A stretch of 52,910 bases of DNA from Blautia hansenii (GTDB lineage: Bacteria; Bacillota; Clostridia; Lachnospirales; Lachnospiraceae): positions 1 to 52,910 of the forward strand of contig NZ_JAAITA010000020.1 of NCBI RefSeq assembly GCF_013304445.1, read 5' to 3'. This document shows, piece after piece, positions 6,508 through 24,125 of this stretch (positions are counted from its first letter, which is position 1; each line of letters opens with the position of its first letter). A program made the position numbers and the translations under genes. A model generated the notes under the pieces. It was not told the origin of the DNA. It ran no database searches and was given only the letters and a program-made list of their open reading frames with translations.

Positions 6508-7692
6508 CTATTTTATTTCATCATTTTCTTTATAAATCTTATTCCACTCTCCATAGGTCAAACGGTTTCGGTACCATTTAGAAGTGTCATCTAAGTTCGA
6601 CTTAATAACTTGATTGGATATATAGTGAAAACGGTTATTATCTAACGGCTGAATGACTAATTCACTTGTCATTGCATTATCCTGCATTGTTCTTTCCCAC
6701 ACCGCATTAATTATAAGTTTAATTTTCCCATCATCCATCTTTTCATATGATACTACTTCTGGATACGGTTCATACGTTGATCCATAGTCATATAATCCTC
6801 TTGGTCTGTACAAATACGTTTTTGTTTCTGCATTATAAATGGCATTAGACTCTAATACTTCACTTTCAACTGTTAAAAATGTTTGAATAACTTCCTCAAA
6901 ATCTTGTTTTGGAATATAATATTCTACTCCTTCTTGACTATAATTATATGGAACATATTTTTCATATTTTAAAAGATACATAATCTCATATAGATCATAA
7001 AAATCAAGTTGTGAATAATCACTTTGATTCCAATTCGTTATAAATAACTTATTTCCAGCATAACCTACTGGCATAACATACTTTCTATTCAACTCCCGAC
7101 ATGCTTCATCCAATGGTTCCACACGAAATCCAATTTTCCCATGATATCCATCATATCCCTGTCGATCATATTCTTCTATGAAAAAATACCCATTTTTTGT
7201 ATACTTCCATGATTGTACTTGAAATTCATTAATGTACTCAGCTTCTGGAGCGTCCTGATCCCAAGTCATATTACTACATATGGCATAAATTTCCCCATTT
7301 TGAGAGTTTAAATCATATCTCACAAATCCTCCTGATTCCATAATAGAAAAAATTGTTATACTATCATTAACCTCGTTTTGCACATTCTTGCAAAATTTTT
7401 TCACTAGTTCTCCATTTACCATATCTATTTGATTATTTATGTCAACCGCAATATAGTTTTTTCTGCCTAAATATTCAATAATGTCTTGTTGTAATTTCAA
7501 TGAATTTCTATTGCTTTGATTCCATCTTTCTTTGTATATATGAAAATAATCATCTGCCAAATCTTCGGATTCTACCAGAATTTCTTCAGTTCTTTGAACT
7601 AATTGTACTTGATTTGAATTTTTTTGTATTTTATTACATCCTCCTAGTAGAAAACTAATGACACCAATAATGATCATTAATCTAACTTTCAT
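6508..7692 (-). CDS. Lipoprotein A of a three-member paralogous family
   Basis: Predicted exported lipoprotein of 394 residues. The signal peptide MKVRLMIIIGVISFLLGGC ends in a lipobox, so the protein should be anchored outside the membrane. I do not recognise a named domain, but the protein is clearly related to those at 7749-8945 and 22892-24094: all three share a block ending in NWNQS or NWDES-type sequence (here LFITNWNQSDYSQLDFYDLYEIMYLLKY) followed by a C-terminal block PEVVSYEKMDDGKIKLIINAVW. The start ATG 7692 was chosen over the TTG at 7707 because GGAGAGGAAG lies just ahead. It is the third gene of the MecA-like PBP operon (57 bp after the preceding gene) and so is probably BlaI-controlled. 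Role unknown; a beta-lactam response or PBP accessory function is inferred from context only. Confidence 0.8.
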   Translation of the reverse strand: MKVRLMIIIGVISFLLGGCNKIQKNSNQVQLVQRTEEILVESEDLADDYFHIYKERWNQSNRNSLKLQQDIIEYLGRKNYIAVDINNQIDMVNGELVKKFCKNVQNEVNDSITIFSIMESGGFVRYDLNSQNGEIYAICSNMTWDQDAPEAEYINEFQVQSWKYTKNGYFFIEEYDRQGYDGYHGKIGFRVEPLDEACRELNRKYVMPVGYAGNKLFITNWNQSDYSQLDFYDLYEIMYLLKYEKYVPYNYSQEGVEYYIPKQDFEEVIQTFLTVESEVLESNAIYNAETKTYLYRPRGLYDYGSTYEPYPEVVSYEKMDDGKIKLIINAVWERTMQDNAMTSELVIQPLDNNRFHYISNQVIKSNLDDTSKWYRNRLTYGEWNKIYKENDEIK

Positions 7693-7748
7693 ACTCTTCC
7701 TCTCCAATTACAATATCAGTTATAAAAAAATCTATTTTCTTAATTTAC

Positions 7749-8945
7749 TTAAAAATCTCTTCGCGGTTTATATTCTGGAATTTTATATGCTCCCTCACGT
7801 TCAATACAGTTTCCCAAATATATCCACTTGTCACCTTCTTCTCGGATTGTCACTTCATGTCTGAATGAACAATCTGTTCCTTCTTCCTGAAAAACAGCTT
7901 CTACTGTCAAAGTTAATGATCCATCCTCATTTTCTATACAATTCACTACTTCTGGGAAAGGTTGGAATTGTTGAATTCGATTCCATGGACCAATTGCTTC
8001 CCATGGATATACCCCCTTCACGTCATCGTATTGAGCATATATTTCCAAGGTTTCTATTGAAATATCAAAATAAGTTGTGACCACTTCTTCAAATTCTACT
8101 TTAGGAATGCCTGATGCATATTTTTTTTCATCAATTTTCTCCCCATACTTCATTGTGTATAAAAACTCAAACAAATCATTAAACTCTATATTTTCCAAAC
8201 TGTTTTGATTCCAATCTACGAGGAACAGATTATTGCAAAAGTAACTAACCGGTGTAATACATTTATTTCCTAATTCTCTGCACTGTTCATCAAGTGGCAA
8301 AATTCTATAAAAAACATGCATATCCATTTCTTGATTTCTTGATAATGCCTTCTCCCATATAATCCACCCTTTATCAGTATAGTTCCAATCATATACCTGA
8401 ATTTTTTCTATCTGCACAATATGTGGACTCATATTATCATCAAATGCAGCTGTTGCTGATGTTACATATAAATCTTTGTTTTTAAATTGAAGTTTATTAT
8501 ATATCCAAACACCACTTGTATTAATTACAAAAAATTCAGTTTCAGTATTTTCTCCTGTTTTTGCCAAAGAAAGAGCATCATCAACTTGTTTATAATTCAA
8601 CATATTATAATCATGACTGCCACAGGTAATGGCAACATTCTCTTCTGCAATACTTTCGATCATTGTATGAACTGTCTCTTCTTCAAGAACAATATTTGAC
8701 GCATTACCTTTATCTGCCTGACTGTATATCCTTTTGCATTTTCCAACCATTTTCCTTAAGCGATCACTAATGTCTTTTTCTTCTTTTCTCCCCATTTCAA
8801 TATTTTTTAATTCATAATCATCATTTTCATCCATCACCACATTCTCTTCTTCTGTATTATTAATTATAAGATCATTTTGAGACCCATTTTTTTCACATCC
8901 GGATAATACTAAAGAAACCAAAATAATAGCCAACATTTTCTTCAT
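7749..8945 (-). CDS. Lipoprotein B of a three-member paralogous family
   Basis: Predicted lipoprotein of about 398 residues with the signal MKKMLAIILVSLVLSGC and Cys as the lipid anchor. It aligns by eye with lipoproteins A and C: shared are LPLDEQCRELGNKCITPVSYFCNNLFLVDWNQNS, a middle acidic segment, and FPEVVNCIENEDGSLTLTVEAVF followed by the CSFRHEVTIREEGD block. No catalytic motif is recognisable. Starts at 8957 (GTG) and 8951 are possible, but GTG lies inside the Shine-Dalgarno AAGGTG; ATG 8945 has correct spacing. It is the second gene of the operon behind the MecA-like PBP, with 29 bp between, so both are likely made together when BlaI is released. Function unknown. Confidence 0.8.
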   Translation of the reverse strand: MKKMLAIILVSLVLSGCEKNGSQNDLIINNTEEENVVMDENDDYELKNIEMGRKEEKDISDRLRKMVGKCKRIYSQADKGNASNIVLEEETVHTMIESIAEENVAITCGSHDYNMLNYKQVDDALSLAKTGENTETEFFVINTSGVWIYNKLQFKNKDLYVTSATAAFDDNMSPHIVQIEKIQVYDWNYTDKGWIIWEKALSRNQEMDMHVFYRILPLDEQCRELGNKCITPVSYFCNNLFLVDWNQNSLENIEFNDLFEFLYTMKYGEKIDEKKYASGIPKVEFEEVVTTYFDISIETLEIYAQYDDVKGVYPWEAIGPWNRIQQFQPFPEVVNCIENEDGSLTLTVEAVFQEEGTDCSFRHEVTIREEGDKWIYLGNCIEREGAYKIPEYKPRRDF

Positions 8946-8974
8946 TAACATTTTCACCTTTTTTCATCTCATTC

Positions 8975-11056
8975 CTATCGTAAATATTGATCCAATACTC
9001 TTTTATCTTTTTGAACTACATAACCACTGCCACCAATATTTTTTACATCTTCAACCATACTAATTAGCAATATTGGATTCTCAATATTAGGATCAGTTGT
9101 AAAAACTGCCATCCACCCCAATTCTGTTCCTGTTGCATCTTCTTTTGAAAGCTTTATTTCTGCCGTTCCTGTTTTTCCAGCCAAAGTGTACTCCTCTCTA
9201 TGTAAACCATATCCCGTTGCTGTTGGTTCACTAATAACTTTCTTCATTGTCTCTAAAACAGTATGAATACTTTCTTTTTGAATAACTTCCGGCATCCATA
9301 TATTGGGATTATAATTTGGGTTATATAGTAACGTCGGTTCAATTATATTTCCATCATTACTAAATGCGGAATAAATAGAAGCTAGATGCAATGGATTTAT
9401 TAAGATTTGACCTTGTCCATATCCACTATCTGCCAATTGAATTTCTGACTTTATTCCTTCTGTATTTGAATACTGTGATATTGACATTTTAATATCAAAT
9501 GGTATTTCTTTGTTAAACCCCAATTTTTCTAAAAAGCTAGTTAAATTATTTTCCCCCAGTTTAAGTGCTACTTTTGCAAAATATATATTATCAGAATATA
9601 TCATTGCATTTTCCAGTGTTGCAGGTTCAGTCTCATGTAATGTGGTCACATAATAATCCCCCCATGACGAGTCTTTTTGCCAGCTTAAACCTTCGTTTCC
9701 ATAATCTTCTACAGGATCAAGAATACCTGTGTCTAACCCTATCACTGCAGTAACAGGTTTAAATGTTGATCCGGGACACCATACCTGTCTGAATCGATTG
9801 TACAAAGGTTGCCTTTCATCTTCATTTAAGCTTTTCCATAATTTATCTGACATTCCCATTACAAAATCATTTGAGTTAAAAGAAGGAGTACTGACCAGTG
9901 CCAAAACTTCTCCTGTATATTGGTTCATAGCAACAGAACAACTCTTATCATCCTTAAACTGTTCATACAAGACTTTTTGCAATTCTGCATCAATTGTTAA
10001 TTGAATATCCTCTCCGTTTTGAACCGGTTTATCTACAATAATATCTTTTCTGTTTCCAAATTCATCTTCGATATATATCATGCAACCATTTTGACCTTTT
10101 AATTTATCTTCATATAAACTTTCTATACCACTTCTCCCTATAACACTATTGGAATCATAACCTTTCCCTTTATTCTCTTCCAAATCTTCCGCTGTAACTT
10201 TTTGAATATATCCAACCAAATGTGACGCTGCTTCTTTTAAAGGATAGTCTCTAACTTCGATATCGTTAATCATAACACCTGGAATTGATAGTAATTCCTC
10301 TTGATTTTCCTTTAATTTTACAAGATTTTCATCCGGATTAATTTTCATTAATTCCAATTCACTAACTTTAGGAATTGTTTTTATAGGAACAAATGAATCA
10401 TCTTTTACCCACTCTGCAGACAATTTGTTCTTTATCACATCAATATCCACTTCAAGCAACTCCGCAAGTTTAATTATTGTGTTTTCTTTATCCTGAATTT
10501 TACCCGGCACTAGCCCAACTGATGATGCAACCCCTTTTCCAGCTAACACTTTTCCATTCCGATCTAAAATTTGTCCTCGCTCTGCTTCTACAGTATCTAT
10601 TCGTACTTTATCTGTAGACTCTAATTGCGGAAAAATAATACTATCTTTCCAAACAAGTTTATATTCAAATTTTTCTTTTATAAAGTTTACTTCATTTTGA
10701 AATTTCACTTCACCTGCAAGAGTATTAAATGATGTAAGATATGAAATCTCTTTACCATTGGATTTCTCATTTAAAATTTTAATGCTTAAATCCTTCGTTT
10801 CTAATCCTTCATATATGTTTTTATTTCTCTTTACAAATTCTTCCATAGAAATATTCGATGAATGTTCTTTAGAAATCATTTTATACATTTTTTCATATTC
10901 ATGTTTATTGATATAATTCATATATTCGGTTAGCAATTGTTCAGTAGTGTTCTTATGTGTCTGTTTCGTAATAAAAAAAATCAAGCTCAATACTAAAATT
11001 AAAGAAAATATTATTAATATCAATCTACCTGTCCATTCAAATTTTTTTCTTTTCAT
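8975..11056 (-). CDS. MecA-like class B penicillin-binding protein
   Basis: Transpeptidase that cross-links peptidoglycan outside the membrane. The 693-residue protein has an N-terminal membrane anchor (about 11-30), then an NTF2-like region of the MecA_N type (35-140: LLTEYMNYINKHEYEKMYKMIS), the PBP dimerisation/pedestal domain beginning AERGQILDRNGKVLAGKG (158-175), and a transpeptidase domain with STFK (430-433), SDN (488-490) and KTGT (628-631). The N-terminal extension is the hallmark of low-affinity class B PBPs such as PBP2a, PBP5fm and B. subtilis PbpC. It is divergent from blaI-blaR1 with a TTAC-N4-GTAA operator at its promoter, so beta-lactam-inducible expression is very likely. 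Low affinity for beta-lactams is inferred. The ATG has GGAGAC ahead. Two lipoprotein genes follow in the same operon. Confidence 0.92.
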   Translation of the reverse strand: MKRKKFEWTGRLILIIFSLILVLSLIFFITKQTHKNTTEQLLTEYMNYINKHEYEKMYKMISKEHSSNISMEEFVKRNKNIYEGLETKDLSIKILNEKSNGKEISYLTSFNTLAGEVKFQNEVNFIKEKFEYKLVWKDSIIFPQLESTDKVRIDTVEAERGQILDRNGKVLAGKGVASSVGLVPGKIQDKENTIIKLAELLEVDIDVIKNKLSAEWVKDDSFVPIKTIPKVSELELMKINPDENLVKLKENQEELLSIPGVMINDIEVRDYPLKEAASHLVGYIQKVTAEDLEENKGKGYDSNSVIGRSGIESLYEDKLKGQNGCMIYIEDEFGNRKDIIVDKPVQNGEDIQLTIDAELQKVLYEQFKDDKSCSVAMNQYTGEVLALVSTPSFNSNDFVMGMSDKLWKSLNEDERQPLYNRFRQVWCPGSTFKPVTAVIGLDTGILDPVEDYGNEGLSWQKDSSWGDYYVTTLHETEPATLENAMIYSDNIYFAKVALKLGENNLTSFLEKLGFNKEIPFDIKMSISQYSNTEGIKSEIQLADSGYGQGQILINPLHLASIYSAFSNDGNIIEPTLLYNPNYNPNIWMPEVIQKESIHTVLETMKKVISEPTATGYGLHREEYTLAGKTGTAEIKLSKEDATGTELGWMAVFTTDPNIENPILLISMVEDVKNIGGSGYVVQKDKRVLDQYLR

Positions 11057-11078
11057 AATTGTCTCCTGTTTCCATATC

Positions 11079-11090
11079 TTACGTTTGTAA
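11079..11090. promoter_or_regulatory. BlaI-type operator, MecA-like PBP promoter
   Basis: TTACGTTTGTAA fits TTAC-N4-GTAA, the dyad bound by BlaI/MecI repressors. It overlaps the last two bases of the PBP -10 box on the minus strand, so bound BlaI would block this promoter. Confidence 0.8.
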
Positions 11091-11117
11091 TATATTCTAT
11101 TATCACTTTTTTGTCAA
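11089..11117 (-). promoter_or_regulatory. Promoter of MecA-like PBP operon
   Basis: On the minus strand TTGACA (11112-11117), a 17-bp spacer and TATATT (11089-11094). This is a near-consensus sigma-A promoter directed at the PBP gene, immediately followed by a BlaI-type operator. Confidence 0.75.
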
Positions 11118-11125
11118 TAGCCTTC

Positions 11126-11154
11126 TTGACGTTTCTATTTCAATGCTCTATAAT
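11126..11154 (+). promoter_or_regulatory. Promoter of blaI-blaR1
   Basis: TTGACG (11126-11131), a 17-bp spacer and TATAAT (11149-11154), so nearly consensus. The operator at 11157-11168 covers the expected transcription start. The two divergent promoters lie in a 130-bp gap, so BlaI autoregulates and controls both. Confidence 0.8.
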
Positions 11155-11156: not shown

Positions 11157-11168
11157 TTACGAAAGTAA
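11157..11168. promoter_or_regulatory. BlaI-type operator, blaI promoter
   Basis: TTACGAAAGTAA fits TTAC-N4-GTAA and begins 2 bp after the blaI -10 box, covering the start point. It supports autoregulation, as in known bla and mec systems. Confidence 0.8.
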
Positions 11169-11186: not shown

Positions 11187-11576
11187 ATGGATAAATTACC
11201 ACAAATATCTGAAGCAGAATATGAAATCATGAAAATAATATGGGATGAGTCACCAATAAGCACAAATTCTATTTGTGAAAAAGTTCCATCTATACACAAT
11301 TGGAGTAATAAAACAGTTCATACGTTATTATCTCGTTTAGTGTCAAAACATGTTATTTCTTATGAACAAAAAGGGCGTATGTATTACTATTTTCCCATTA
11401 TCTCTAAAAATAAATATTTATCACAAGAGAACCATAATTTTTTATCTCGCTTTTATGATGGTGAAATGGCTCCGCTATTATCTTCCTTACTATCCAATGC
11501 CCAATTATCTGACAGCGATTTAAAGAATATGTATCATCTTATAGACTCTAAATTGAATGGTGGTGATGAAACCTAA
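11187..11576 (+). CDS. blaI: BlaI/MecI-family repressor
   Basis: Dimeric winged-helix repressor of beta-lactam-inducible genes. All 129 residues match the family in length and layout: N-terminal DNA-binding half LPQISEAEYEIMKIIWDESPISTNSICEKVPSIHNWSNKTVHTLLSRLVSKHVISYEQKGRMYYYFPIIS, with recognition helix NKTVHTLLSRL, and a C-terminal dimerisation helix region in which BlaI is cleaved after induction. AAAGGAGA precedes the ATG. The stop TAA overlaps the blaR1 ATG by one base, so the two are translationally coupled. TTAC-N4-GTAA operators lie at its own promoter and at three others in the cargo region, defining a probable regulon. Confidence 0.93.
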   Translation: MDKLPQISEAEYEIMKIIWDESPISTNSICEKVPSIHNWSNKTVHTLLSRLVSKHVISYEQKGRMYYYFPIISKNKYLSQENHNFLSRFYDGEMAPLLSSLLSNAQLSDSDLKNMYHLIDSKLNGGDET

Positions 11577-13366
11577 TGTTCTCGATTCACTTTTTATTAT
11601 GTAATCTCACTATCAGTATCTTATTGGGGATAATTCTATTACTCAAAAAACTATTAAAAAATTATATTACAACTAATAGTCGGTATTATTTGTGGTACAT
11701 TTTTGTATGTGCGCTTATTATTCCTTTCATACCATTCAAAAATATCGGACCACATCAATTATTAATAAAGTTACAACACTTTTTCCAACAAGATACGGGT
11801 AAAATTGTAAATACTTCTACAAAACAACTTGATGATATAAATTTATCTGTTCAATTAGGTACTTCTGATTTTGCGTCAGCTCAAGATAATTTTAATTTGT
11901 ATGATCTTGATAAATACTTATTTGCAATATGGATAATCGGGTGTTTGTTTACATTAGTATATTTTATATATAATATTGTTAAAATTCATTTAATCCAAAA
12001 AAAAGCTTTTTTGATAACTTCTGAAAACGAACCAGAACTATACCAACAATACATTTCGTGTCATGAAAAATTAAAAATAAGACGACATGTCGCTTTATAC
12101 GCTTCATGTAATATTTCAAGCCCTGTTTCTTACGGTCTTCTATATCCCAAGGTAATTATTCCTCAAGATATGGATATATTACTGTCTGAACAGGATGTAT
12201 ATTATATCTTTTTACATGAATTACAGCATTATAAACACAAGGATGCTGCATTAAATTATATAAGTTGCATTTTACAGATCATATATTGGTTTAACCCATT
12301 CATTTGGTACGGATTTCATATATTACAAAAAGATCGGGAAATTGCATGCGACAACTCAGTAATTAACATCATAGGGAAAAACAACTGTATAGATTATGGC
12401 TATACATTAATAAGATATGCTGAAAAAATGCAACACAATGCTTTTCTCTCTCCACTCTCTCGTTTAGGTGGAGAAAAAAAGGTCATTATAGATAGAATAA
12501 AAGAAATAGCAAATTATCAAAAAATTTCTAAAAAGCATAAGAGAAACAGCATTGTAATCTTAGTGTTCGCTTGTGTTCTAGTATACTGCATTAGTCCCTT
12601 ATTAACTGTCTATGCATCACGAGACTCATCTAATAATTTGACTTCCCAAAATATAGATGACATAGACCTATCTTCTTATTTCAGTAAAACAAGTGGTAGC
12701 TTTGTAATATATGATATGACAAATGATAGATACAAAATTTATAATAAAGATTTAAGCACCAAACGAGTTTCTCCGGATTCCACTTATAAAATTTATAGTG
12801 GTTTATTTGCATTAGAGGAAGGTGTAATCAATTATAATTCTTCTAATCAGCACTGGGACGGAACAAACTATTATTTTGATTCATGGAACAAAGACCAAAC
12901 CCTTACTACAGCTTTACGTAATTCTGTTAATTGGTATTTTCAAAATCTTGATACACAAATAGGATACCAAACACTTTATTCTTATTATAACAAAATTTCA
13001 TATGGGAATTGCGATTTATCAGCTGGTATTGAAGATTATTGGTCCGAATCTTCCTTAAAGATTTCACCGGTAGAACAGGTAATCCTATTATCTGAACTTC
13101 TGGAAAATAAATGGGAGTTTGAGGAAAAAAATATTCAAGCAATAAAAGATGCCTTATTTATTTCTGATACATCCATTGGAAAATTATATGGAAAGACAGG
13201 TACTGGGTCATTGAATGGACAAAATACAAACGGTTGGTTTATTGGCTTTATTGAACACGGTGAAAATACTTATTGTTTTGCTACCAACCTTCAGAATTCC
13301 GAGAATGCCACCGGCAGTGCTGCTTCAGAAATAACTATAGAAATATTAAATTCTTTATTCTCTTAA
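11576..13366 (+). CDS. blaR1: BlaR1/MecR1-type beta-lactam sensor-protease
   Basis: Membrane receptor that binds beta-lactams outside and triggers loss of BlaI inside. In 596 residues: several N-terminal membrane helices (7-27, 38-55, 111-137), a cytoplasmic M56 zinc-protease domain with HELQH (214-218) followed by the conserved DREIACDNSV, another membrane helix (about 324-346), and a class D beta-lactamase-like extracellular sensor with STYK (402-405), SVN (450-452), SYGN (475-478) and KTG (540-542). All expected motifs are present, so it should be functional. It overlaps blaI by one base. The sensor domain resembles the class D enzyme encoded next, including SSLKISP.EQ, indicating that the receptor and the enzyme share an origin. 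Confidence 0.93.
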   Translation: MFSIHFLLCNLTISILLGIILLLKKLLKNYITTNSRYYLWYIFVCALIIPFIPFKNIGPHQLLIKLQHFFQQDTGKIVNTSTKQLDDINLSVQLGTSDFASAQDNFNLYDLDKYLFAIWIIGCLFTLVYFIYNIVKIHLIQKKAFLITSENEPELYQQYISCHEKLKIRRHVALYASCNISSPVSYGLLYPKVIIPQDMDILLSEQDVYYIFLHELQHYKHKDAALNYISCILQIIYWFNPFIWYGFHILQKDREIACDNSVINIIGKNNCIDYGYTLIRYAEKMQHNAFLSPLSRLGGEKKVIIDRIKEIANYQKISKKHKRNSIVILVFACVLVYCISPLLTVYASRDSSNNLTSQNIDDIDLSSYFSKTSGSFVIYDMTNDRYKIYNKDLSTKRVSPDSTYKIYSGLFALEEGVINYNSSNQHWDGTNYYFDSWNKDQTLTTALRNSVNWYFQNLDTQIGYQTLYSYYNKISYGNCDLSAGIEDYWSESSLKISPVEQVILLSELLENKWEFEEKNIQAIKDALFISDTSIGKLYGKTGTGSLNGQNTNGWFIGFIEHGENTYCFATNLQNSENATGSAASEITIEILNSLFS

Positions 13367-13525: not shown

Positions 13526-14452
13526 ATGAAAAAAAACAAGTCTTTTTATCTATTAATTATTGGAATTTTGGTTGGTATATTTGCATTTTCAGGTTGCACG
13601 AATCATAATAATTCAGACGCTAAGAATATACAACAGGATACAAAAGATCCTACTCCAGAGAAATTTTCTGTAGTAGAATCACAAGAACCCACACTAACTG
13701 AAGTAGATTGGTCTAATTATTTTGAAGGCTTAACCGGGACCGCAATAGTATACGATCCAACAGAAAAAAACTATATGATATATAATAAAGAACTGGCTCT
13801 AACGCAGAGATCTCCATGTTCTACATTTAAAATTATCTCTTCGTTAATCGGTTTAGAAAACGGAATTATTGATCCTGATAATTCTGTGCGTCCTTGGAGC
13901 GGTGAAATATTTTGGAATGAGGACTGGAATAGAGATATCAATTTTTCTGATGCATTTCGTACCTCATGTGTTTGGTATTTTCGTCAGGTCACTGATGACA
14001 TTGGCAAGGTGAAAATGCAGAATGAACTTAATAAACTGAAATATGGAAATTGTGATATTTCTGATTGGGAGGGAAAGTTAAATACTAATAACAACAATAG
14101 AGCCTTAACAGGTTTCTGGATAGAATCGTCTTTGAAAATTTCTCCAAAAGAACAGGTTGAAGTGATGGAACGAATCTTCGGAACTGACTCCACCTACTCA
14201 GAAAGAACACAAAATATTTTAAAACAAGTAATGTTGATATCAGAAGAGAATAATACGGAAATATCTATTTATGGAAAAACAGGAATGGGAAAAGCAGAGG
14301 GTATTGTTGTAGATGCATGGTTCACAGGATTTGCAGAAACACTAGAAGGAAATAAATATTTTTGTGTATATCTCGGACAATCAGATGCAGGCAACACATC
14401 AAGCACTGCCGCAAAGGAAATCGCCATTCAAATTCTTAATGACAATAAATGA
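13526..14452 (+). CDS. Class D (OXA-type) beta-lactamase lipoprotein
   Basis: Serine beta-lactamase expected to hydrolyse penicillins outside the membrane. It has 308 residues with the lipoprotein signal MKKNKSFYLLIIGILVGIFAFSGC (lipid on Cys24) and the class D motifs: STFK (99-102, preceded by SPC), S-x-V as SCV (147-149), YGN (173-175), the Trp of the FWIESSLKIS segment (W198) that supports the carboxylated lysine, and KTG (251-253). All active-site motifs are intact. It lies 160 bp behind blaR1 on the same strand without a terminator between them, so it is probably the third gene of the blaI operon. Similar BlaRI-controlled class D enzymes are known from Clostridioides difficile. A strong terminator follows. 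The substrate range cannot be told from sequence. Confidence 0.9.
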   Translation: MKKNKSFYLLIIGILVGIFAFSGCTNHNNSDAKNIQQDTKDPTPEKFSVVESQEPTLTEVDWSNYFEGLTGTAIVYDPTEKNYMIYNKELALTQRSPCSTFKIISSLIGLENGIIDPDNSVRPWSGEIFWNEDWNRDINFSDAFRTSCVWYFRQVTDDIGKVKMQNELNKLKYGNCDISDWEGKLNTNNNNRALTGFWIESSLKISPKEQVEVMERIFGTDSTYSERTQNILKQVMLISEENNTEISIYGKTGMGKAEGIVVDAWFTGFAETLEGNKYFCVYLGQSDAGNTSSTAAKEIAIQILNDNK

Positions 14453-17574: not shown

Positions 17575-18108
17575 TTACTCTAAATTGATATTAATGTGAT
17601 TTTTATTTTTTATAAATGTAATAAATTGCTCCTCTGTACCAAAACTAAATTCATCGCCATTAATTACAAGCCCTTTATTACCATATCCTAACCAACAAAG
17701 ATTCTTTTTGATATTACAACAGGTTATATTCTTCCATTCAATAATGGTTCTATCGTACTTTCTTATAATTTCCAGCTTATCGTCATAAAAGTTATAAGTT
17801 ACTTTCTCTTTATACCTTTTATAAGAATAATTTGAATCTAATTTTAAAAATATTTTCTTAGTATAACTTATTGTCCAATAATATAAAAATATAAAAGTTA
17901 TTGCAATAAGCGGAATACTATAGATCCATTTGTCTGATCCAATCAAAGTACAAACTACAATTCCAATAAATACTTCAATGATTATAAAGTGACGACTCAG
18001 ATCAGCCAATTCCCTTTTTCCATTTTTATTTTCATATTTTAAATTTTGATAATAATATTCTATCACCGCCTCATCATACAATGTATGATTTTGTAAAATG
18101 ACATCCAT
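17575..18108 (-). CDS. YcxB-like small membrane protein (2 of 2)
   Basis: Protein of 177 residues with two membrane helices (about 41-57 and 63-83) flanked by a soluble N-terminal segment and a C-terminal domain that begins YNFYDDKLEIIRKYDRTIIEWKNITCCNIKK and ends with a short helix EEQFITFIKNK. This layout is that of the YcxB-like family, whose function is not known. It starts with ATG 18108, one base after the TAA of the upstream paralogue, so the two are coupled. It is the last gene of the predicted D,D-carboxypeptidase/PBP operon. The tandem duplicates have diverged strongly. Confidence 0.7.
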   Translation of the reverse strand: MDVILQNHTLYDEAVIEYYYQNLKYENKNGKRELADLSRHFIIIEVFIGIVVCTLIGSDKWIYSIPLIAITFIFLYYWTISYTKKIFLKLDSNYSYKRYKEKVTYNFYDDKLEIIRKYDRTIIEWKNITCCNIKKNLCWLGYGNKGLVINGDEFSFGTEEQFITFIKNKNHININLE

Positions 18109-18109: not shown

Positions 18110-18640
18110 TTAATTTCTTCCTTTCCATACTCTACTCCAATCTTCTCCAGCTAATGTGTTTAATTTAATAAATCTTTTAAAGTCTTCTATATCTCCGATA
18201 ACAAAATTTTCTTTTCTTATAAAAATAAGTTGATTAATAACGCGAATCCAGCAATACTCTTTTATGGTGCCAATTTCCATAATTTCGATAAAAGACACTA
18301 TTATTTTCTTACCGCTTTCCGGAACTAAAACATTAATCTCATCTTTTTTTATTGTCATAATTCTTTTTCCAGTTCCATACTGTTTTAAAGCAGTTTCCAT
18401 TTGTATATAAGTCGCTAGTCTCAGATATATATTATTTATCAATATCACAGCACAAACAAATAATATCATCATAGTCATAATCATTTCTCTTCCAATTTTA
18501 CTACATAGACAAAATGAAAATATAATCACTGCTCCACAAAAGAATAATAATATCCTTCTGTACTTTCTATTTTGGGTTTGATAATATAAACAAAAGAGTT
18601 CTTTGTTCCACTCATAATGTATTTGAAATAATATATCCAT
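18110..18640 (-). CDS. YcxB-like small membrane protein (1 of 2)
   Basis: Protein of 176 residues with two adjacent membrane helices (about 28-44 and 53-70), a central KKDEINVLVPESGKKIIVSFIEIMEIGTIKEYCWIRVINQLIFIRKENF stretch and a final helix DIEDFKRFIKLNTLAG. It has the same topology as the next gene and the YcxB-like family. GGAGAAAAAC precedes its ATG. It follows the large PBP by 30 bp, so it belongs to the BlaI-controlled operon by position. It might assist the transpeptidase or respond to envelope stress, but this is only inference from the neighbourhood. Confidence 0.7.
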   Translation of the reverse strand: MDILFQIHYEWNKELFCLYYQTQNRKYRRILLFFCGAVIIFSFCLCSKIGREMIMTMMILFVCAVILINNIYLRLATYIQMETALKQYGTGKRIMTIKKDEINVLVPESGKKIIVSFIEIMEIGTIKEYCWIRVINQLIFIRKENFVIGDIEDFKRFIKLNTLAGEDWSRVWKGRN

Positions 18641-18670: not shown

Positions 18671-21424
18671 TTATTCTATACCGAAATAATACTCAAAAAT
18701 ATTTTTTCCGCATTCTACTGCGTTCCCTGCCTCATACCCATTTACAATTCGAACTGCTACTGCTATTTCTGGATCATCAGCAGGTGCATATCCTATAAAT
18801 AGACCATGATCCGGTCTATTCTTAACTTCTTGAGCTGTACCTGATTTTCCTGCAACCGATATTGGAAATCCGTCAAATATCCCCGTGCTTTGAGTATATA
18901 ATTCCATACCTGCATGGACTCCTTCCCAGCTTCTTTTATTGATTTCAATCTGGCTTTCCACTTTCGGGCTTGTTTCTACCCCGTCAATTTTGTCAATTAG
19001 TGACAATTGGAAACTAGTACCTTCGTTTGCAAGTGTTGTTACATACCTTCCCAATTGGACTGTAGAAAAGTTATTTGTTCCTTGTCCGATAGCTGATGGA
19101 ATAGCATAATTATCAGTTATCTTAGGTTTACTTTCGGTTAACTCAATTCCACTTTTTTCATCTAAATCAAACATTTTCGCGTACTCTTGTATATAATTTA
19201 GTGCCTGTTTATCCGAAAATTCATCATTGTCTATCATTCCTAAACGATATGACACTTCACATAAATAATCATTACATGAATTCTTCAATGCGCTATCTAC
19301 ACCATTAACAGCCCCATGCCCTGCATGGTTCCAGCATTTTAAAGGTGGATCTACTTTATCAAACACTCCATCGCATTCAACCATGGTTGACTCATCTATT
19401 ACACCTTCTTCTAATCCCGCAATAATTGTAACAGGTTTAAATGTTGAGCCTGGTGCTGATAACTGTTGTGTTGCACGATTAAATAAGGGTAATGATGCAT
19501 TATTATATATTTTATAATAATATTTGTTATCCATTTGGTTTGCTAAACGATTATTATCATATCCCGGATAAGATACACATGCTAGCACTTTTCCTGTTGC
19601 GGTATCTGTAACAACTGCTGATCCCGAACATGGATCTAACGCTAAATCCGCTGGCGTAATTTCAAGTTTCTGTATTTTTTTAATTAACAAATCAAAAGTG
19701 GTAATTAGCCCTCGATTCCAGTTTTCGTAATCCTCATCTTCAGGATTTAAAAATTGCTGTTCATATAATAGCCTAACGATATCATCTGGCAATATCTCAT
19801 CGTTGAGTACCAAGTATTTATTTATTAACTCATCAAACTGACTATTTTCCTGTAATTCATTTACTATAAAAGAGACCAATGATTCATAGATTTCATCTTT
19901 GTTCAAGTATTCTTCTTCTGACGCAATTATATCTGAATTTATGTTTCCAACACCAATTTGGTCATACAAATAGTCTTTCATTGATAATTCGCCTTTTTCC
20001 CATTTTTCAACTAATTCTTCATTATTGTTCTTGTTATTTATAATGTTCAAATTATCAATGATAAAACTCTGGTATTCTTGATTTTCAATTCCCAATTCAT
20101 TATATTTCGTTGACAATTCTCTTAAATCTTTTTCAATACCTTGAACCACTTCACTTTTCTTTTTCAGAAAAATTTGAAAAAACTTTCTCTCTAATTCCGA
20201 AGCATCCTCTTCTCTTAATTGTTCTAAATCAATAACGCCATTGTTTAAAAGTGCAATATACACATCATATATTGGAATTTTTATTTCAGTAGTATCATCT
20301 ACCCCTTTTTTATCAAAAGTTTTTGTGTTAATCAGATGTTGCACTAATATATCGGCTATCTTCCTTTCTAATGCTTCATATGTTTTTTTCTGTAATTCAA
20401 CATCTATGCTTAAATATACGTCTTTTCCTGCTCTCGGTTGCTGTATTACTCCAAGATCTTGTGTAGTTCTCCCTGTATTATCTACATATACTTCCTTTTT
20501 CCCATCTCTTCCTTGAAGAACTTGATCTAAATATTGCTCCATTCCAGATTTACCCACTATGGAATTAATGGTTAATTTACTATCATCCCTTTCTTTTAAC
20601 TCCTCGGATGATATAGTGCCTGTGTATCCTAATATAGAGGAACACGCTTCTCCTCCTTCATACACTCGTATTGTATCCTGTTTAATATCAACTCCTGAAA
20701 TATCATATTGATTTTCCATAATGGCAGCAACAGTTTCATCTGATACATCTTTTACCACTGTTACTGAAAGATATTTTTGATATGCCTGTAAAGATAATGC
20801 GTAGCGTATATTTAAAATATCAAGTAGATCACTTTTTTCAAACTGTTGCGGTAATCCATAATCTTTTTTTTCTTTATCTGTATACTTCTTCTCTCCTTGC
20901 GCAAAAACACAGAACTTATCTGATAAATAAGAGACTATTTCATCTGCTGTAGAATTTCGTTCCTTAGCTTCCATATCGTCGATGTTCGCTTTTCCATATA
21001 CATCTGCTTTAAATCTTTGAAGCCAAAAATCATCTACAGAAAATTGGAAATTACCGTTTGGATCTATTATAATTTTTAGACTAGTTTCTATGCTATCTCC
21101 TTTACTTTTTATAATACGAATCATCTGATAAATTTTTGAATTCAAATTCAACTGTCGCTCTCGATCTGAATTATAAGTTTCTTGATCTTCGAATGTAACC
21201 GAATTAGCTAACTTATTTGTAGCAAGTGGTTTGCCATTACGATCATAAATATTTCCTCTTGCTCCAGATAGTACAATTTCTCTTTTCGTTTGTAAAATAA
21301 AATTATTTTCGTATTCTTGTCCTTTCACAATCTGTAATTGAAACAACCGTACTATTAAAATCGAGAACATTATAAAAAAAACAATTAATAGGACTAAACT
21401 TCTTGGTATTTTTAATTTCTTCAT
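18671..21424 (-). CDS. PBP2-like class B penicillin-binding protein
   Basis: Elongation-type transpeptidase of 917 residues. N-terminal membrane helix (8-27), pedestal domain with ARGNIYDRNGKPLATN (55-70), then GKSGMEQYLD (291-300), and a catalytic domain with STFK (660-663), SCN (716-718) and KSGT (860-863). Between the pedestal and catalytic core (about 350-590) is a long acidic, helical insertion, as in PBP2 proteins of Lachnospiraceae. The third motif is KSG rather than KTG, which is common in PBP2. It lies behind the D,D-carboxypeptidase gene (91 bp) without a promoter or operator of its own, so it is likely in the operon with the paired BlaI sites. A second, ICE-borne PBP2 would bypass or replace the host enzyme under drug exposure (inference). 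Confidence 0.9.
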   Translation of the reverse strand: MKKLKIPRSLVLLIVFFIMFSILIVRLFQLQIVKGQEYENNFILQTKREIVLSGARGNIYDRNGKPLATNKLANSVTFEDQETYNSDRERQLNLNSKIYQMIRIIKSKGDSIETSLKIIIDPNGNFQFSVDDFWLQRFKADVYGKANIDDMEAKERNSTADEIVSYLSDKFCVFAQGEKKYTDKEKKDYGLPQQFEKSDLLDILNIRYALSLQAYQKYLSVTVVKDVSDETVAAIMENQYDISGVDIKQDTIRVYEGGEACSSILGYTGTISSEELKERDDSKLTINSIVGKSGMEQYLDQVLQGRDGKKEVYVDNTGRTTQDLGVIQQPRAGKDVYLSIDVELQKKTYEALERKIADILVQHLINTKTFDKKGVDDTTEIKIPIYDVYIALLNNGVIDLEQLREEDASELERKFFQIFLKKKSEVVQGIEKDLRELSTKYNELGIENQEYQSFIIDNLNIINNKNNNEELVEKWEKGELSMKDYLYDQIGVGNINSDIIASEEEYLNKDEIYESLVSFIVNELQENSQFDELINKYLVLNDEILPDDIVRLLYEQQFLNPEDEDYENWNRGLITTFDLLIKKIQKLEITPADLALDPCSGSAVVTDTATGKVLACVSYPGYDNNRLANQMDNKYYYKIYNNASLPLFNRATQQLSAPGSTFKPVTIIAGLEEGVIDESTMVECDGVFDKVDPPLKCWNHAGHGAVNGVDSALKNSCNDYLCEVSYRLGMIDNDEFSDKQALNYIQEYAKMFDLDEKSGIELTESKPKITDNYAIPSAIGQGTNNFSTVQLGRYVTTLANEGTSFQLSLIDKIDGVETSPKVESQIEINKRSWEGVHAGMELYTQSTGIFDGFPISVAGKSGTAQEVKNRPDHGLFIGYAPADDPEIAVAVRIVNGYEAGNAVECGKNIFEYYFGIE

Positions 21425-21515: not shown

Positions 21516-22493
21516 TCATTGCGATTGTAGTTGATTATATAAATAAAAAGCATCATTTACATGAAATGGTTCTGTATTATGATTTCCTTCTGCATTTACT
21601 GTTATAGCAATATATTTTCGACCATTAACAATCGCTTCTGAGGCTAAACAAAGCCCTGCCTCATCTGTATAACCTGTTTTTCCTCCCACAATTTCACCCT
21701 CATCCAACTCCCATTGATCTCGTAGTTTAAACATACTACTATAAAAAGTAAAACCACTTAAATGCTGGTCTGTCGGCGCAACAAAATAACTTTTTGACTG
21801 AAATATATCATTAAAAGTTTGATTTTTTAATGCATACTGTAAAAGAATTCCTATATCTTTCACTGTAGTATAGTGAGATTCATTATGTAATCCTGTTGCA
21901 TTCATAAAATGTGTATTATTCATTCCTAAATCTTTAGCTTTCTCATTCATTAGTTCTACAAATGCTTGTTCTGAACCAGCAACATACTCCGCTAAAGCAA
22001 TTGAACACTCTCCCCCTGAAGGCAAAATGTTTCCATACAATATGTCAATTATTTTTGCATTTTCACCAGGTAGAAAGCCCGCCATTGACGCATTTTGGGC
22101 ATATAGTTCATCAAATATTTCTGGCTCTAATGTAATAGTTGCTTCCAAATTGTTTATATTTTCAATTGCTAGAATACATGTCATTATTTTCGTTAATGAT
22201 GCTGGAAATATTTTTTCATCCTGTTGAAATTGAAATATAACTTTACTGTCATCGAGACTGATTACAATTCCAGCACTACTATGTAGCTGATCTAAATCCA
22301 GTTTCCGCTGTTGTGTCTGAATAACTAATGGTTTTACTGTTTCTTCAGATTTTTCTTCTATTTTCTCCCTCTCTTGCGGATTGAAAATTTTTAATAAGAC
22401 TAACAAACTGATAAGTATTATAAAAAGCAAACTTTCTATTATCCAAACTATCTTTCTATTTTTCTTTTTTACTTTTTTTCTTCTCTTACTCAT
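21516..22493 (-). CDS. D-alanyl-D-alanine carboxypeptidase (peptidase S11)
   Basis: Low-molecular-weight PBP of the DacA family that trims the terminal D-Ala from peptidoglycan stem peptides. In 325 residues: a lysine-rich N terminus, a membrane helix (about 15-35), then the active-site SLTK in FPASLTKIMT, the second motif in LPSGGECSIALAEYV (SGG instead of the usual SGN) and KTGY in VGGKTGYTDEAGLC. There is no C-terminal amphipathic anchor; it is anchored at the N terminus, and the protein is shorter than DacA. AAGGT precedes the ATG. It is the first gene of the operon with PBP2-like and YcxB-like genes, and two BlaI-type operators lie 140-175 bp upstream. Confidence 0.88.
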   Translation of the reverse strand: MSKRRKKVKKKNRKIVWIIESLLFIILISLLVLLKIFNPQEREKIEEKSEETVKPLVIQTQQRKLDLDQLHSSAGIVISLDDSKVIFQFQQDEKIFPASLTKIMTCILAIENINNLEATITLEPEIFDELYAQNASMAGFLPGENAKIIDILYGNILPSGGECSIALAEYVAGSEQAFVELMNEKAKDLGMNNTHFMNATGLHNESHYTTVKDIGILLQYALKNQTFNDIFQSKSYFVAPTDQHLSGFTFYSSMFKLRDQWELDEGEIVGGKTGYTDEAGLCLASEAIVNGRKYIAITVNAEGNHNTEPFHVNDAFYLYNQLQSQ

Positions 22494-22549
22494 ATATACC
22501 TTAATCTTCTTTCTATAACCTGATAACTAAATATTCGTTTACAAAAACC

Positions 22550-22642
22550 ACGCGTGTAAGACTTATAGCTAATAAATCTTTTTTATTTTTACAGGTGTCA
22601 TATTTAGAAGTATATATATAACACCACGAATCTTACACGCGT
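22550..22642. repeat. Long-range inverted repeat in leader of dac operon
   Basis: ACGCGTGTAAGA (22550-22561) is the exact reverse complement of TCTTACACGCGT (22631-22642). The second arm overlaps the BlaI-type operator. Both arms would be in the roughly 150-nt leader of the carboxypeptidase-PBP transcript, so the left arm could pair with it in RNA, or act as a degenerate third repressor site. Confidence 0.5.
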
Positions 22643-22644
22643 AA
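22633..22644. promoter_or_regulatory. BlaI-type operator 1 of dac-PBP operon
   Basis: TTACACGCGTAA within TCTTACACGCGTAAGA. It lies just downstream of the -10 box of the operon promoter, near the expected start point, 25 bp (centre to centre) from operator 2. Confidence 0.78.
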
Positions 22645-22654
22645 GACATTTATA

Positions 22655-22683
22655 ATATTACATACGTAAGATTGGAATGTCAA
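22655..22683 (-). promoter_or_regulatory. Promoter of dac-PBP operon
   Basis: On the minus strand TTGACA (22678-22683), a 17-bp spacer and TAATAT (22655-22660). One BlaI-type operator lies across the spacer and -10 box, the other behind it. The leader to the first start codon at 22493 is about 150 nt. Confidence 0.7.
22658..22669. promoter_or_regulatory. BlaI-type operator 2 of dac-PBP operon
   Basis: TTACATACGTAA followed by GATT, close to the TTACATATGTAAGATT shape I recall from the B. licheniformis blaP operators. It overlaps the -10 box and spacer of the operon promoter. Confidence 0.8.
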
Positions 22684-22793
22684 TATATTTTTTTCTATTT
22701 CATATTCTACGTGATCATGTTATTTGACCTTTTGCAAATTACCTGCATTGATTTTAATTCATCAAATATACCTTAACTTTAAACGAAACATGT

Positions 22794-22849
22794 CTATAAT
22801 ATTTGAGGGCAGAATCGCAAAAATACGAATCTGCCCTCAAATATTATAG
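22794..22849 (-). terminator. 56-base hairpin behind lipoprotein C
   Basis: The arms 22794-22813 and 22830-22849 are perfectly complementary over 20 bp (core TTTGAGGGCAGA/TCTGCCCTCAAA), and the pairing continues after one mismatch (TCG/CGA). It lies about 40 bases past the stop of lipoprotein C and upstream of the dac promoter. It is probably a terminator, although unusually long and with a weak T-tract. Confidence 0.6.
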
Positions 22850-22891
22850 TGCAATGCTTAGATATATAATTTAACTTGTTGAAATTCTTTT

Positions 22892-24094
22892 TCAATACTC
22901 TTCGTATACTGGAATATCTAATTCAATTTTCTGTACTTTATTAGACAAATATTGACAAGTTCCATCGCCATACGGTTTAATGACAATTTCATTTTTAAAA
23001 GCACAATCAGTATTCCTATCTGGCCATACAGCATCAACATATAGCGTGAGTGTTCCATCACTATTATCCAAATAATCTACTACTTCACCAAAAGGGGATG
23101 TTCCTCGATAAAAAAAGGTTCCACTATCATAGGTATTACTTTCCATATCATATCCACAATGCTTTCGCAATTCTTCTATTGTAACAGGTAAACAAGCTAT
23201 CATAACATTTTCATATATTTCTGCTGAAATTCTCCCTGAATCTTTCTTTAATTGTTCACCTGTATGTACCTGATATAAATCCTCAAACAATCTAGGTAAT
23301 AATATCGTTTCTACATTACTTTCGTCCCAATTTTGAGTAAGAAAATTATAGTTCAAATAGTTAAATACAGAAACATATTGATCAGTTAATATTCGCAATG
23401 TGTCCGATAACGGTTTTACACGATAATATTCTTTTAGTGCTGCATGTGCAACAATATACTCATATGAATAGATTAGATATCCTTTTGATGTGTATTTTAT
23501 TTCAGCAATATTGTTCGCTGTTCCGTTTGATATTTCAGCTTGTTCTCCTTTTTCCCAAGTAAGAGTCATTGTAAAAGTTTGCAACACTTTATTTCGATAT
23601 ATAAAAGTTTCAGAACAAAAAGAACCATCATTATTTACCTCATATATTGTAACATCTGTTTCTCTATCCTCTAAATAATCCAGATAAAATTCTTCCACTT
23701 TTTCATAATTTTCCATATTCATATTTTCAGCCACACATACCAAACCATTTTCGCCAAAACGCTTTTTTATCTTTTTTACTTCCTCTCTTGAAATACTCTG
23801 ATATCCTGTTGTTTGATCAATAATTGGATGATAAATATCCTTACATTGAGTTACTATTTTTAATAATTGATTTCGAAGTTCTTGCTTCTCTTTTTCTGTT
23901 AAAATACATTTCGTTTCTTCTCTAATAAATGGATTTTGGATATTCTGTTCTTCTTTTTCTTCTAACTGTTGATATACTTTCCAATTGTCTTCATTACCTT
24001 TTTTTTCTTGTATCTTTTCTTTGCAACTGGTCAAAGCATATAATATAATCAATATTGTGAGAAGTATAATCATTATCTTCCACTTTTTCTGCAT
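22892..24094 (-). CDS. Lipoprotein C of a three-member paralogous family
   Basis: Predicted lipoprotein of 400 residues with the signal MQKKWKIMIILLTILIILYALTSC. It shares with lipoproteins A and B the middle block (LRILTDQYVSVFNYLNYNFLTQNWDESNVETILLPRLFEDLYQVHTGE) and the C-terminal block FGEVVDYLDNSDGTLTLYVDAVWPDRNTDCAFKNEIVIKPYGDG; the match to B around NTDCAF/GTDCSF is striking. Start ATG 24094 has AAGGAG at correct distance; the longer frame from 24130 would run through the operator. A single BlaI-type operator, TTACATTTGTAA, lies between the promoter and the ribosome binding site, so this gene has its own inducible promoter. Function unknown. It stands alone and ends in a long hairpin. 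Confidence 0.82.
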   Translation of the reverse strand: MQKKWKIMIILLTILIILYALTSCKEKIQEKKGNEDNWKVYQQLEEKEEQNIQNPFIREETKCILTEKEKQELRNQLLKIVTQCKDIYHPIIDQTTGYQSISREEVKKIKKRFGENGLVCVAENMNMENYEKVEEFYLDYLEDRETDVTIYEVNNDGSFCSETFIYRNKVLQTFTMTLTWEKGEQAEISNGTANNIAEIKYTSKGYLIYSYEYIVAHAALKEYYRVKPLSDTLRILTDQYVSVFNYLNYNFLTQNWDESNVETILLPRLFEDLYQVHTGEQLKKDSGRISAEIYENVMIACLPVTIEELRKHCGYDMESNTYDSGTFFYRGTSPFGEVVDYLDNSDGTLTLYVDAVWPDRNTDCAFKNEIVIKPYGDGTCQYLSNKVQKIELDIPVYEEY

Positions 24095-24113
24095 TTTTTC
24101 TTTCTCCTTAATA

Positions 24114-24125
24114 TTACATTTGTAA
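24114..24125. promoter_or_regulatory. BlaI-type operator of lipoprotein C
   Basis: TTACATTTGTAA lies 20 bp upstream of the ATG at 24094 and 12 bp downstream of the -10 box, so it would cover the start of transcription. It links this lipoprotein to the BlaI regulon. Confidence 0.8.

What the first reader, a model, noticed from the sequence alone, without database searches (positions are those of the whole stretch)
6508..24125. ICE-borne BlaI regulon with PBPs, D,D-carboxypeptidase and lipoproteins
Five copies of TTAC-N4-GTAA (11079, 11157, 22633, 22658, 24114) lie in or next to four promoters: blaI, MecA-like PBP, dac-PBP2 and lipoprotein C. Together they place at least ten genes under one beta-lactam sensor: enzyme, two transpeptidases, a carboxypeptidase, two YcxB-like and three related lipoproteins. 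Known bla/mec systems control one or two genes. This looks like a complete, mobile, inducible cell-wall remodelling programme.
Basis: partly seen in the sequence, partly recalled or inferred. Interest (0 to 1): 0.92.

Follow-up and report, generated by a model that had tools for sequence, protein, structure and literature searches.

The report
Mobile beta-lactam-inducible cell-wall gene set
A conjugative element in a clostridial bacterium appears to place a beta-lactamase, two spare wall-building enzymes, a wall-trimming enzyme and companion lipoproteins under one penicillin-sensing switch of the MRSA type, a larger version of a known resistance circuit.

Summary
The five TTAC-N4-GTAA sites are at the stated places; the window has 6 matches against 0.65 expected. 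A motif model built only from 25 blaI promoters of other genomes ranks exactly these five first in the window. All four promoters are TTGAC-N17-TAnnnT with the operator on, or within 11 bases of, the -10 box. The same operator precedes MecA-like PBPs, DUF6070 lipoproteins and blaI in many genomes of the family, and is absent from 18 of 21 more distant PBP relatives. The dac-PBP2 operon has the least precedent: two other genomes have a second PBP2 behind the operator, one beside blaI-blaR1, and one has a dac behind it. Integrase, relaxase, VirD4 and VirB4 are present. Best reading: a BlaI/BlaR1 (bla/mec-type) regulon of about 11 genes that supplies spare beta-lactam targets when BlaR1 is acylated. 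Induction, binding and low affinity are inferred, not shown. "Known systems control one or two genes" is too strong, and one "YcxB" gene is unsupported. New variant of a known kind.

The parts
11187..11576 (+). BlaI repressor (129 aa)
   Evidence: PF03965 E 1.7e-31; solved relatives are BlaI and MecI
11576..13366 (+). BlaR1 sensor/signal transducer (M56 HELQH + class-D-like sensor STYK, SVN, KTG)
   Evidence: NF000326 625.9 bits, cut-off 400; motifs; BlaR1 chain 8exs E 4.8e-73
13526..14452 (+). CDD-like class D beta-lactamase lipoprotein (STFK, SCV, YGN, KTG); probably co-transcribed with blaI-blaR1
   Evidence: NF033866 blaCDD 251.6 bits, cut-off 600; best solved relative 7kep E 5.1e-68 over residues 1-304; no terminator-like site on + strand in the 159 bp gap
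8975..11056 (-). MecA/PBP5-like class B PBP (MecA_N + dimer + transpeptidase)
   Evidence: PF05223, PF03717, PF00905; below the PBP4(5) and MecA equivalog cut-offs
7749..8957 (-). DUF6070 lipoprotein B
   Evidence: PF19546 E 7.6e-92; 17 bp after the PBP gene
6508..7707 (-). DUF6070 lipoprotein A
   Evidence: PF19546 E 1.1e-114; model mean pLDDT 91.1
6048..6401 (-). wHTH (Trans_reg_C) protein without receiver, possible fourth gene of the PBP operon
   Evidence: PF00486 E 3.3e-26; 106 bp after lipoprotein A; relatives lie 122-158 bases from blaI in 5 of 27 blaI loci
21516..22493 (-). D,D-carboxypeptidase (Peptidase_S11), first gene of the dac operon
   Evidence: PF00768 E 2.1e-46
18671..21424 (-). 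MrdA-like PBP2 (917 aa), distinct from the other full-length PBP2 of the genome at C24 (45%)
   Evidence: PF03717 and PF00905; TIGR03423 380.8 bits, cut-off 455; tree
   Evidence: no Pfam match above a cut-off and none to YcxB
17575..18108 (-). possible YcxB-like membrane protein
   Evidence: PF14317 E 0.005, 17.0 bits, cut-off 23.3
22892..24097 (-). DUF6070 lipoprotein C (ATG at 24097)
   Evidence: PF19546 E 3.7e-65
11079..11090 (.). BlaI operator at the MecA-like PBP promoter
11157..11168 (.). BlaI operator at the blaI promoter
22633..22644 (.). BlaI operator, dac leader (downstream of -10)
22658..22669 (.). BlaI operator overlapping spacer and -10 of the dac promoter
24114..24125 (.). BlaI operator at the lipoprotein C promoter
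22589..22600 (.). weaker operator-like site in the dac leader (score 15.5)
22548..22559 (.). weak operator-like site in the dac leader (score 7.3, within chance)
11126..11154 (+). blaI promoter TTGACG-17-TATAAT
11089..11117 (-). PBP promoter TTGACA-17-TATATT
22655..22683 (-). dac promoter TTGACA-17-TAATAT
24137..24165 (-). lipoprotein C promoter TTGACT-17-TAATAT
88..1206 (-). tyrosine integrase of the element
   Evidence: PF00589
35510..36676 (-). MobA/VirD2-type relaxase
   Evidence: PF03432 E 1e-37
31286..33055 (-). VirD4-like coupling protein, CD1115 family
   Evidence: NF045973 523.6 bits, cut-off 250
26693..29041 (-). VirB4-like ATPase, CD1110 family
   Evidence: NF045971 1008.2 bits, cut-off 325
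24499..26181 (-). lysozyme-like + CHAP transfer hydrolase
   Evidence: PF13702, PF05257

Best explanation
The element carries a BlaI/BlaR1 regulon of the bla/mec type. BlaI dimers sit on TATTAC-N4-GTAAGA-type operators at four sigma-A-type promoters and repress: blaI-blaR1-(class D enzyme); MecA-like PBP-DUF6070-DUF6070; dac-PBP2-two membrane-protein-like ORFs; and a third DUF6070 lipoprotein. A beta-lactam acylates the BlaR1 sensor, the M56 protease is activated, BlaI is inactivated, and all four units switch on. The cell then has an enzyme that destroys the drug and spare versions of drug targets: a PBP2a/PBP5-type transpeptidase, an elongation-type PBP2 and a D,D-carboxypeptidase. The DUF6070 lipoproteins most likely serve the MecA-like PBP as dedicated outer-surface partners. 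Shown by sequence: sites, promoter-like motifs, gene families, conservation of the site, conjugation genes. Inferred: binding, induction, co-transcription beyond the first genes, hydrolysis, low drug affinity of the PBPs, DUF6070 function.
For: Sites: 6 against 0.65 expected. Model trained on 25 blaI sites of other genomes (25 of 26 foreign blaI genes have one) ranks the five sites 1 to 5: 24.5, 21.9, 21.4, 17.4, 17.3; null maximum for the whole window: mean 8.0, 99% 16.2, highest 21.8 of 300; in AT-rich intergenic null sequence 99.9% 16.3, highest 16.6 of 2000. Promoters: four TTGAC-N17-TAnnnT at the operators. Elsewhere: 89 of 108 strict sites in foreign loci lie within -60 to +250 of a blaI, MecA-like PBP or DUF6070 start. 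MecA-like PBP: operator in 25 of 29 relatives of 53% identity or more (window included) and in 3 of 21 below; those 3 are the ones with DUF6070 in the fetched stretch. DUF6070 loci 35 of 58 against 19 of 827 control ORFs. PBP2: G022 has blaI-blaR1-operator-PBP2 and G040 a second PBP2 with two operators; the PBP2 copies L193 (own C24) and L194 (G040 C57) have none. dac: G064 has an operator 36 bases upstream of a dac beside PBP-blaR1-blaI. Sensor and repressor.
Against: No expression or binding data. The S. aureus BlaI cleavage pair Asn101-Phe102 (PMC9834060 passages) aligns with Ser-Leu here, so the cleavage step is not assured. The dac relatives nearest in sequence have no site within 250 bases upstream (0 of 19 loci), so the dac arrangement has one precedent only (28% identical dac). 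The individual dac sites (17.4, 17.3) are above the 99% null but below its maximum. 23 of 58 DUF6070 loci show no site by the automatic test. The promoter scan as a whole finds hardly more promoter-like sites than shuffles (126 against 105.4). The genome has a second BlaI-family repressor (C2:95550) that could use the sites, and one site elsewhere (C11) whose 16-base core scores like the window's (18.0).
Confidence: 0.83

Rival explanations
1. An ordinary bla/mec divergon (blaI-blaR1-enzyme and MecA-like PBP); the dac and lipoprotein C sites are chance or relics and these genes are not controlled by BlaI.
For: The blaI and PBP sites have many direct precedents, the dac site one; the two dac sites score lowest of the five; no site before 19 related dac genes.
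Against: Both genes have the site at a TTGAC-N17-TAnnnT promoter; DUF6070 and PBP2 genes carry the operator in other genomes; the strict motif is at background level in genomes without such clusters (38 sites against 43 for the control in 15 genomes chosen as lacking DUF6070).
Confidence: 0.07
2. The sites are real but are used mainly by another repressor of the BlaI/CopY family, such as the chromosomal paralogue at C2:95550, so the signal need not be a beta-lactam.
For: A second BlaI-family gene exists; CopY-type operators share TACANNTGTA, and the 10-base core is said to be insufficient for binding (PMC7253601 passages).
Against: The element's own blaI carries the same site and 25 of 26 foreign blaI genes do; sites cluster with blaI-blaR1; the only full-length BlaR1 match at E 1e-20 in the genome is on the element.
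Confidence: 0.05
3. BlaI here responds mainly to a peptidoglycan fragment, as proposed for B. licheniformis, and the dac-PBP2 arm is a wall-homeostasis loop (Dac changes the stem peptides that feed the signal) rather than a set of spare targets.
For: PMC3305447 (abstract) reports a dipeptide that binds BlaI/MecI; the S. aureus cleavage residues are not conserved here; the operon codes for a stem-trimming enzyme.
Against: A full BlaR1 with HELQH is next to blaI; PMC9834060 (abstract and passages) reports direct BlaI cleavage by BlaR1 without other components. Nothing here tests the ligand.
Confidence: 0.05

Closest known systems
mecA-mecR1-mecI / blaZ-blaR1-blaI of staphylococci (and mecD island of Macrococcus)
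   Same: BlaI/MecI repressor, BlaR1/MecR1 sensor-protease, inducible MecA-type PBP on a mobile element, operator of the same type: the five sites have 1, 3, 3, 1 and 1 mismatches to the 18-position mec/bla divergon consensus quoted in PMC5341023 (passages; count)
   Different: Four promoters; adds dac, an MrdA-like PBP2 and three DUF6070 lipoproteins, and a class D enzyme (blaZ being class A is recalled); carried by an element with relaxase and type IV secretion genes
C. difficile blaCDD (class D) system
   Same: Closest class D enzyme family; a BlaI/BlaR-controlled CDD operon is recalled from the literature, not read here
   Different: The window enzyme is far below the CDD cut-off (251.6 of 600 bits); no PBP or dac arm is recalled for CDD
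Enterococcus PBP5/PBP4 low-affinity PBPs
   Same: MecA_N-type class B PBP; best NCBIfam score is PBP4(5) (593.5 of 700 bits)
   Different: BlaI control and DUF6070 neighbours are not recalled for them; not tested here
M. tuberculosis BlaI regulon
   Same: BlaI controls several genes, including cell division and ATP synthesis genes (PMC12565901 passages)
   Different: Here the targets are a compact set of wall enzymes on a mobile element; that the mycobacterial targets are scattered is recalled
Tn1549/CTn-type ICEs (CD1110/CD1115 transfer families)
   Same: VirB4 and VirD4 families, relaxase, lysozyme/CHAP protein, integrase
   Different: Cargo is the BlaI regulon; comparison with Tn1549 itself is recalled, not run

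Membership tests
BlaI/BlaR1 (bla/mec) regulatory system | BlaI/MecI-type repressor next to a BlaR1/MecR1 sensor-protease | tested here: met
   PF03965; NF000326 625.9 bits over cut-off 400; HELQH, STYK, KTG
BlaI/BlaR1 (bla/mec) regulatory system | TTAC(A)-N2-(T)GTAA operator on the promoters of blaI and targets | tested here: met
BlaI/BlaR1 (bla/mec) regulatory system | Asn-Phe cleavage site of BlaI as in S. aureus | tested here: inconclusive
   Ser-Leu at the aligned place; cleavage in distant BlaI proteins may use other residues
BlaI/BlaR1 (bla/mec) regulatory system | Induction by beta-lactams and binding of BlaI to the operators | not testable with these tools
   needs an experiment
PBP2a/MecA equivalog | Score above the curated cut-off NF000237 (750 bits) | tested here: not met
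   458.4 bits; MecA_N, dimer and transpeptidase domains present, so it is a MecA-like relative, not MecA
CDD class D beta-lactamase | Score above the curated cut-off NF033866 (600 bits) | tested here: not met
   251.6 bits; STFK, YGN and KTG present; 7kep is the closest solved relative (that it is a CDD enzyme is recalled)
MrdA (PBP2) equivalog | Score above TIGR03423 cut-off (455 bits) | tested here: not met
   380.8 bits in three stretches; 51% identical to an operator-linked PBP2 of G040 and 45% to the own C24 copy
DUF6070 (PF19546) | Score above gathering cut-off 27 bits | tested here: met
   383.5, 308.5 and 220.7 bits
YcxB-like (PF14317) | Score above gathering cut-off 23.3 bits | tested here: not met
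   17.0 bits for 17575-18108, no match for 18110-18640
Integrative and conjugative element | Integrase, relaxase, coupling protein and VirB4 on one element | tested here: met
   all on one contig
Integrative and conjugative element | Attachment sites or circular form; transfer | not tested
   the window is the whole contig (52910 bases), both ends are contig ends

The most novel reading that the evidence does not exclude
The element carries a switchable spare set for wall elongation: on beta-lactam contact it replaces not one but several drug targets at once (a MecA-like PBP, the elongation PBP2, and a carboxypeptidase), with DUF6070 lipoproteins as a new class of dedicated partners of low-affinity PBPs used across Lachnospiraceae. 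The paired dac and PBP2 echo the host's own locus, where a PBP2 and a dac-like gene lie in one neighbourhood (gene order read by eye from the ORFs).
Probability: 0.35. Interest if true: 0.8.

Novelty: new variant of a known kind. Interest (0 to 1): 0.62.

Why it matters
MRSA-type inducible resistance is usually seen as one enzyme plus one spare transpeptidase (recalled). If this regulon works as its sequence says, clostridia of this family hold a mobile version that exchanges several wall enzymes together, and the DUF6070 lipoproteins (54 of 299 family genomes; no paper in the held library names them) become a testable new component of low-affinity PBP function. It also gives an operator model for finding such regulons in commensals.

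Tried and rejected
Chance sites: rejected. The sixth exact match (25539) is rejected as an operator: inside an ORF and not among the 25 best scores or the 12. Own-genome sites outside the element: of nine, eight score 11.1 or less on the 16-base core; C11:108309 scores 18.0 on the core, more than site 11157 (15.9), but 0.0 with flanks, and its gene context was not worked out, so it stays open. Regulon beyond the cluster: in 21 cluster genomes the strict motif gives 95 sites against 48 for the reversed control, and in 15 others 38 against 43 (summed by hand from its table); the surplus fits the cluster sites. G022 and G040, in the second group, do carry a PBP2 operator each; G362, in the first, has no strict site.

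Same cargo site in other elements: weaker than I first thought. In G228 the module lies about 4 kb after a CHAP-type ORF with VirB4 (58%) upstream. In G264 and G175 it lies about 130 bases after two short pieces of a CHAP-type ORF, but no VirB4 relative was found in the 15 kb fetched before that stretch, so these two look like remnants.

Caveats on counts: the model was trained on many of the sites that one search then scores; (blaI sites only) is the cleaner test but its training sites were picked with the same core pattern. The operon walk is crude: L103, L153 and L165 count as misses although the PBP of the cluster has a site. The group labels in the tree hold the G040 protein twice and carry a long-branch warning. 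The family is called Lachnospiraceae because G252, 'same family', has a contig of the same length (505957) as the Robinsoniella record of L006; the genus of the window was not determined.

Full report
Observation. The window holds 6 exact matches against 0.65 expected, and none of 100 shuffles reached 6. The sixth is inside the lysozyme/CHAP ORF. In the whole genome (3.28 Mb, 75 contigs; the window is contig C12, complete) the 16-base form TNTTACNNNNGTAANA occurs 14 times, 5 of them in this 13 kb, against 8 for the reversed control. Of the other nine, eight have weak cores and one (C11) a good core with poor flanks.

Gene content. Pfam and NCBIfam give BlaI, a BlaR1 over its cut-off, a class D enzyme nearest to the CDD family but far below its cut-off, a MecA_N-type PBP below the cut-offs of both MecA and enterococcal PBP4(5), a Peptidase_S11 carboxypeptidase, an MrdA-like PBP2, and three DUF6070 proteins with lipobox-like cysteines (read). 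Of the two 'YcxB-like' ORFs one has a weak match and one none. Catalytic motifs are in place: STFK in both PBPs and the class D protein, KTG in the MecA-like PBP and the class D protein and KSG in PBP2, SLTK and KTG in Dac, and HELQH, STYK, SVN in BlaR1. The class D protein has SCV where the sensor has SVN; that this separates enzyme from sensor is recalled knowledge.

Promoters. At the operators lie four promoters TTGAC-N17-TAnnnT. In the dac promoter the operator 22658 covers the spacer and -10, and 22633 lies just downstream; in the PBP promoter the operator overlaps the -10, in the blaI promoter it follows 2 bases after it, and in the lipoprotein C promoter 11 bases after it. This is the layout of a repressor-controlled promoter. 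Operons: gaps are PBP-LpB 17, LpB-LpA 41, dac-PBP2 91, PBP2-next 30, next 1, blaR1-enzyme 159 bases, with no terminator-like site on the coding strand inside these units (the scan found 4 such sites in all, fewer than in shuffles). So four genes have their own operator and seven more are inferred members, 11 in all.

Independent test of the motif. In other genomes 25 of 26 blaI genes with enough upstream DNA carry a site. A model from those 25 sites ranks the window's five sites first to fifth (24.5 to 17.3); the sixth is 22589 (15.5), also in the dac leader. The null maximum for a sequence as long as the window is 8.0 on average, 16.2 at 99% and 21.8 at most in 300 trials, so the two dac sites are significant as a pair on one promoter rather than overwhelming singly. 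A broader model (110 foreign sites) gives 23.5 to 19.2 for the five and 13.2 for the next; its null maximum was 6.3 on average and 17.5 at most in 200 trials.

Conservation across relatives. Of strict sites in foreign loci 89 of 108 lie near the start of blaI, a MecA-like PBP or DUF6070. For 50 distinct MecA-like PBPs the best upstream score is two-peaked: 22.6 or more, or -8.0 or less. At 53% identity or more 25 of 29 (the window included) have it; of the four without, L004 and L169 have sites before a co-oriented upstream gene, and for L005 and L017 I found none. Below 53% 3 of 21 have it, and these three are the ones with DUF6070 in the fetched stretch. The other MecA-like copy of the own genome, at C73, has none (L128). 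DUF6070 occurs in 54 of 299 genomes of the family; 35 of 58 fetched DUF6070 loci have a site at the gene or operon head by an automatic test, against 19 of 827 control ORFs.

The dac-PBP2 operon. This is the least expected part. Of 145 relatives 107 have a PBP2 match at E 1e-60; G000, G040 and G022 have two full-length copies, and G002, G004, G015 and G084 show two partial matches that look like pieces of one gene. In G022 the second PBP2 directly follows blaI-blaR1 and an operator scoring 29.1; in G040 it has two operators (25.3, 20.8) but no BlaR1 was found in that 92% complete genome. The other copies L193 (own C24) and L194 (G040) have none. In a tree of 24 rows the element's PBP2 groups with that of G040 (99/97), apart from the other copies (98/96), with a long-branch warning and the place of G022 unsure. 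A dac behind an operator was found once more, in G064, beside PBP-blaR1-blaI; 19 closer dac relatives had none within 250 bases upstream. The neighbourhood of the own C24 PBP2 also holds a dac-like gene (39% to the element's), so the element pairs the same two activities as the host locus.

Mobility. Integrase, relaxase, VirD4, VirB4, a weak TrbL/VirB6 match (below cut-off) and a lysozyme/CHAP protein are present. In G228 a PBP-DUF6070-blaR1-blaI module also lies downstream of VirB4 and CHAP-type genes; in G264 and G175 it lies next to pieces of a CHAP-type ORF without a VirB4 relative nearby. Borders and transfer were not tested.

Mechanism. Most likely BlaR1 acylation leads to loss of BlaI and joint expression of the four units, giving drug hydrolysis plus spare targets. 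The sequence layout is shown; the chemistry is inferred from S. aureus (PMC9834060, abstract and passages) with the caution that the cleavage residues differ, and from B. licheniformis a peptidoglycan-fragment route is possible (PMC3305447, abstract and outline). DUF6070 as PBP partner rests on gene neighbourhood alone; the fold searches did not decide it.

Known and new. It works like, and by repressor, sensor and operator belongs to, the bla/mec type. New are the number and kind of targets and the carrier. In the held library I found no description: DUF6070 has no hit; listings only were seen for the searches on BlaI regulon and ICE terms (20 of 35 listed), C. difficile BlaI (12 of 47), Lachnospiraceae/BlaR1/PBP (12 of 34), Clostridium/BlaI/PBP (6 of 6) and carboxypeptidase/PBP2/BlaI (8 of 11), and no listed title was on this. 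The library lacks most subscription papers, so this is weak evidence of absence.

Noticed in passing
15896-17143 and the stretch before it: BNR/Asp-box gene split by an in-frame stop; uninterrupted relatives (56-57% identical, up to 503 aa, one cut by its contig end) follow DUF6070 genes in L003, L100 and L158, so it once belonged to the module.
   Followed up: partly
6048-6401: wHTH DNA-binding protein without a receiver domain; relatives lie 122-158 bases from blaI in 5 of 27 blaI loci, with operators in between. A second regulator of the module?
   Followed up: partly
L124 (G008): A MecA-like PBP with a strong operator (28.9) has no blaI in the fetched 20 kb; the genome's two BlaR1 genes lie more than 0.8 Mb away, so the regulon may work in trans.
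   Followed up: partly
G000:C11:108309 (L130:10312): A chromosomal site with a good 16-base core (18.0) but poor flanks (0.0); gene context not worked out.
   Followed up: partly
L151, L153, L156, L157: A small unknown protein (143-146 aa) starts 17 bases after an operator in L153, L156 and L157; L151 has a site in a similar place. No Pfam match above cut-off for the L156 copy.
   Followed up: no
43043-49122: 1543 aa LPXTG pilin-like protein, a GGACT protein (47655-48143) and an amidoligase (48172-49122) on the element.
   Followed up: no
41229-42386: The element carries a methionine adenosyltransferase (metK) on the same contig as two DNA methylase genes, perhaps to feed SAM to them.
   Followed up: no
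50500-51912: Group II intron reverse transcriptase/maturase near the right end of the contig.
   Followed up: no
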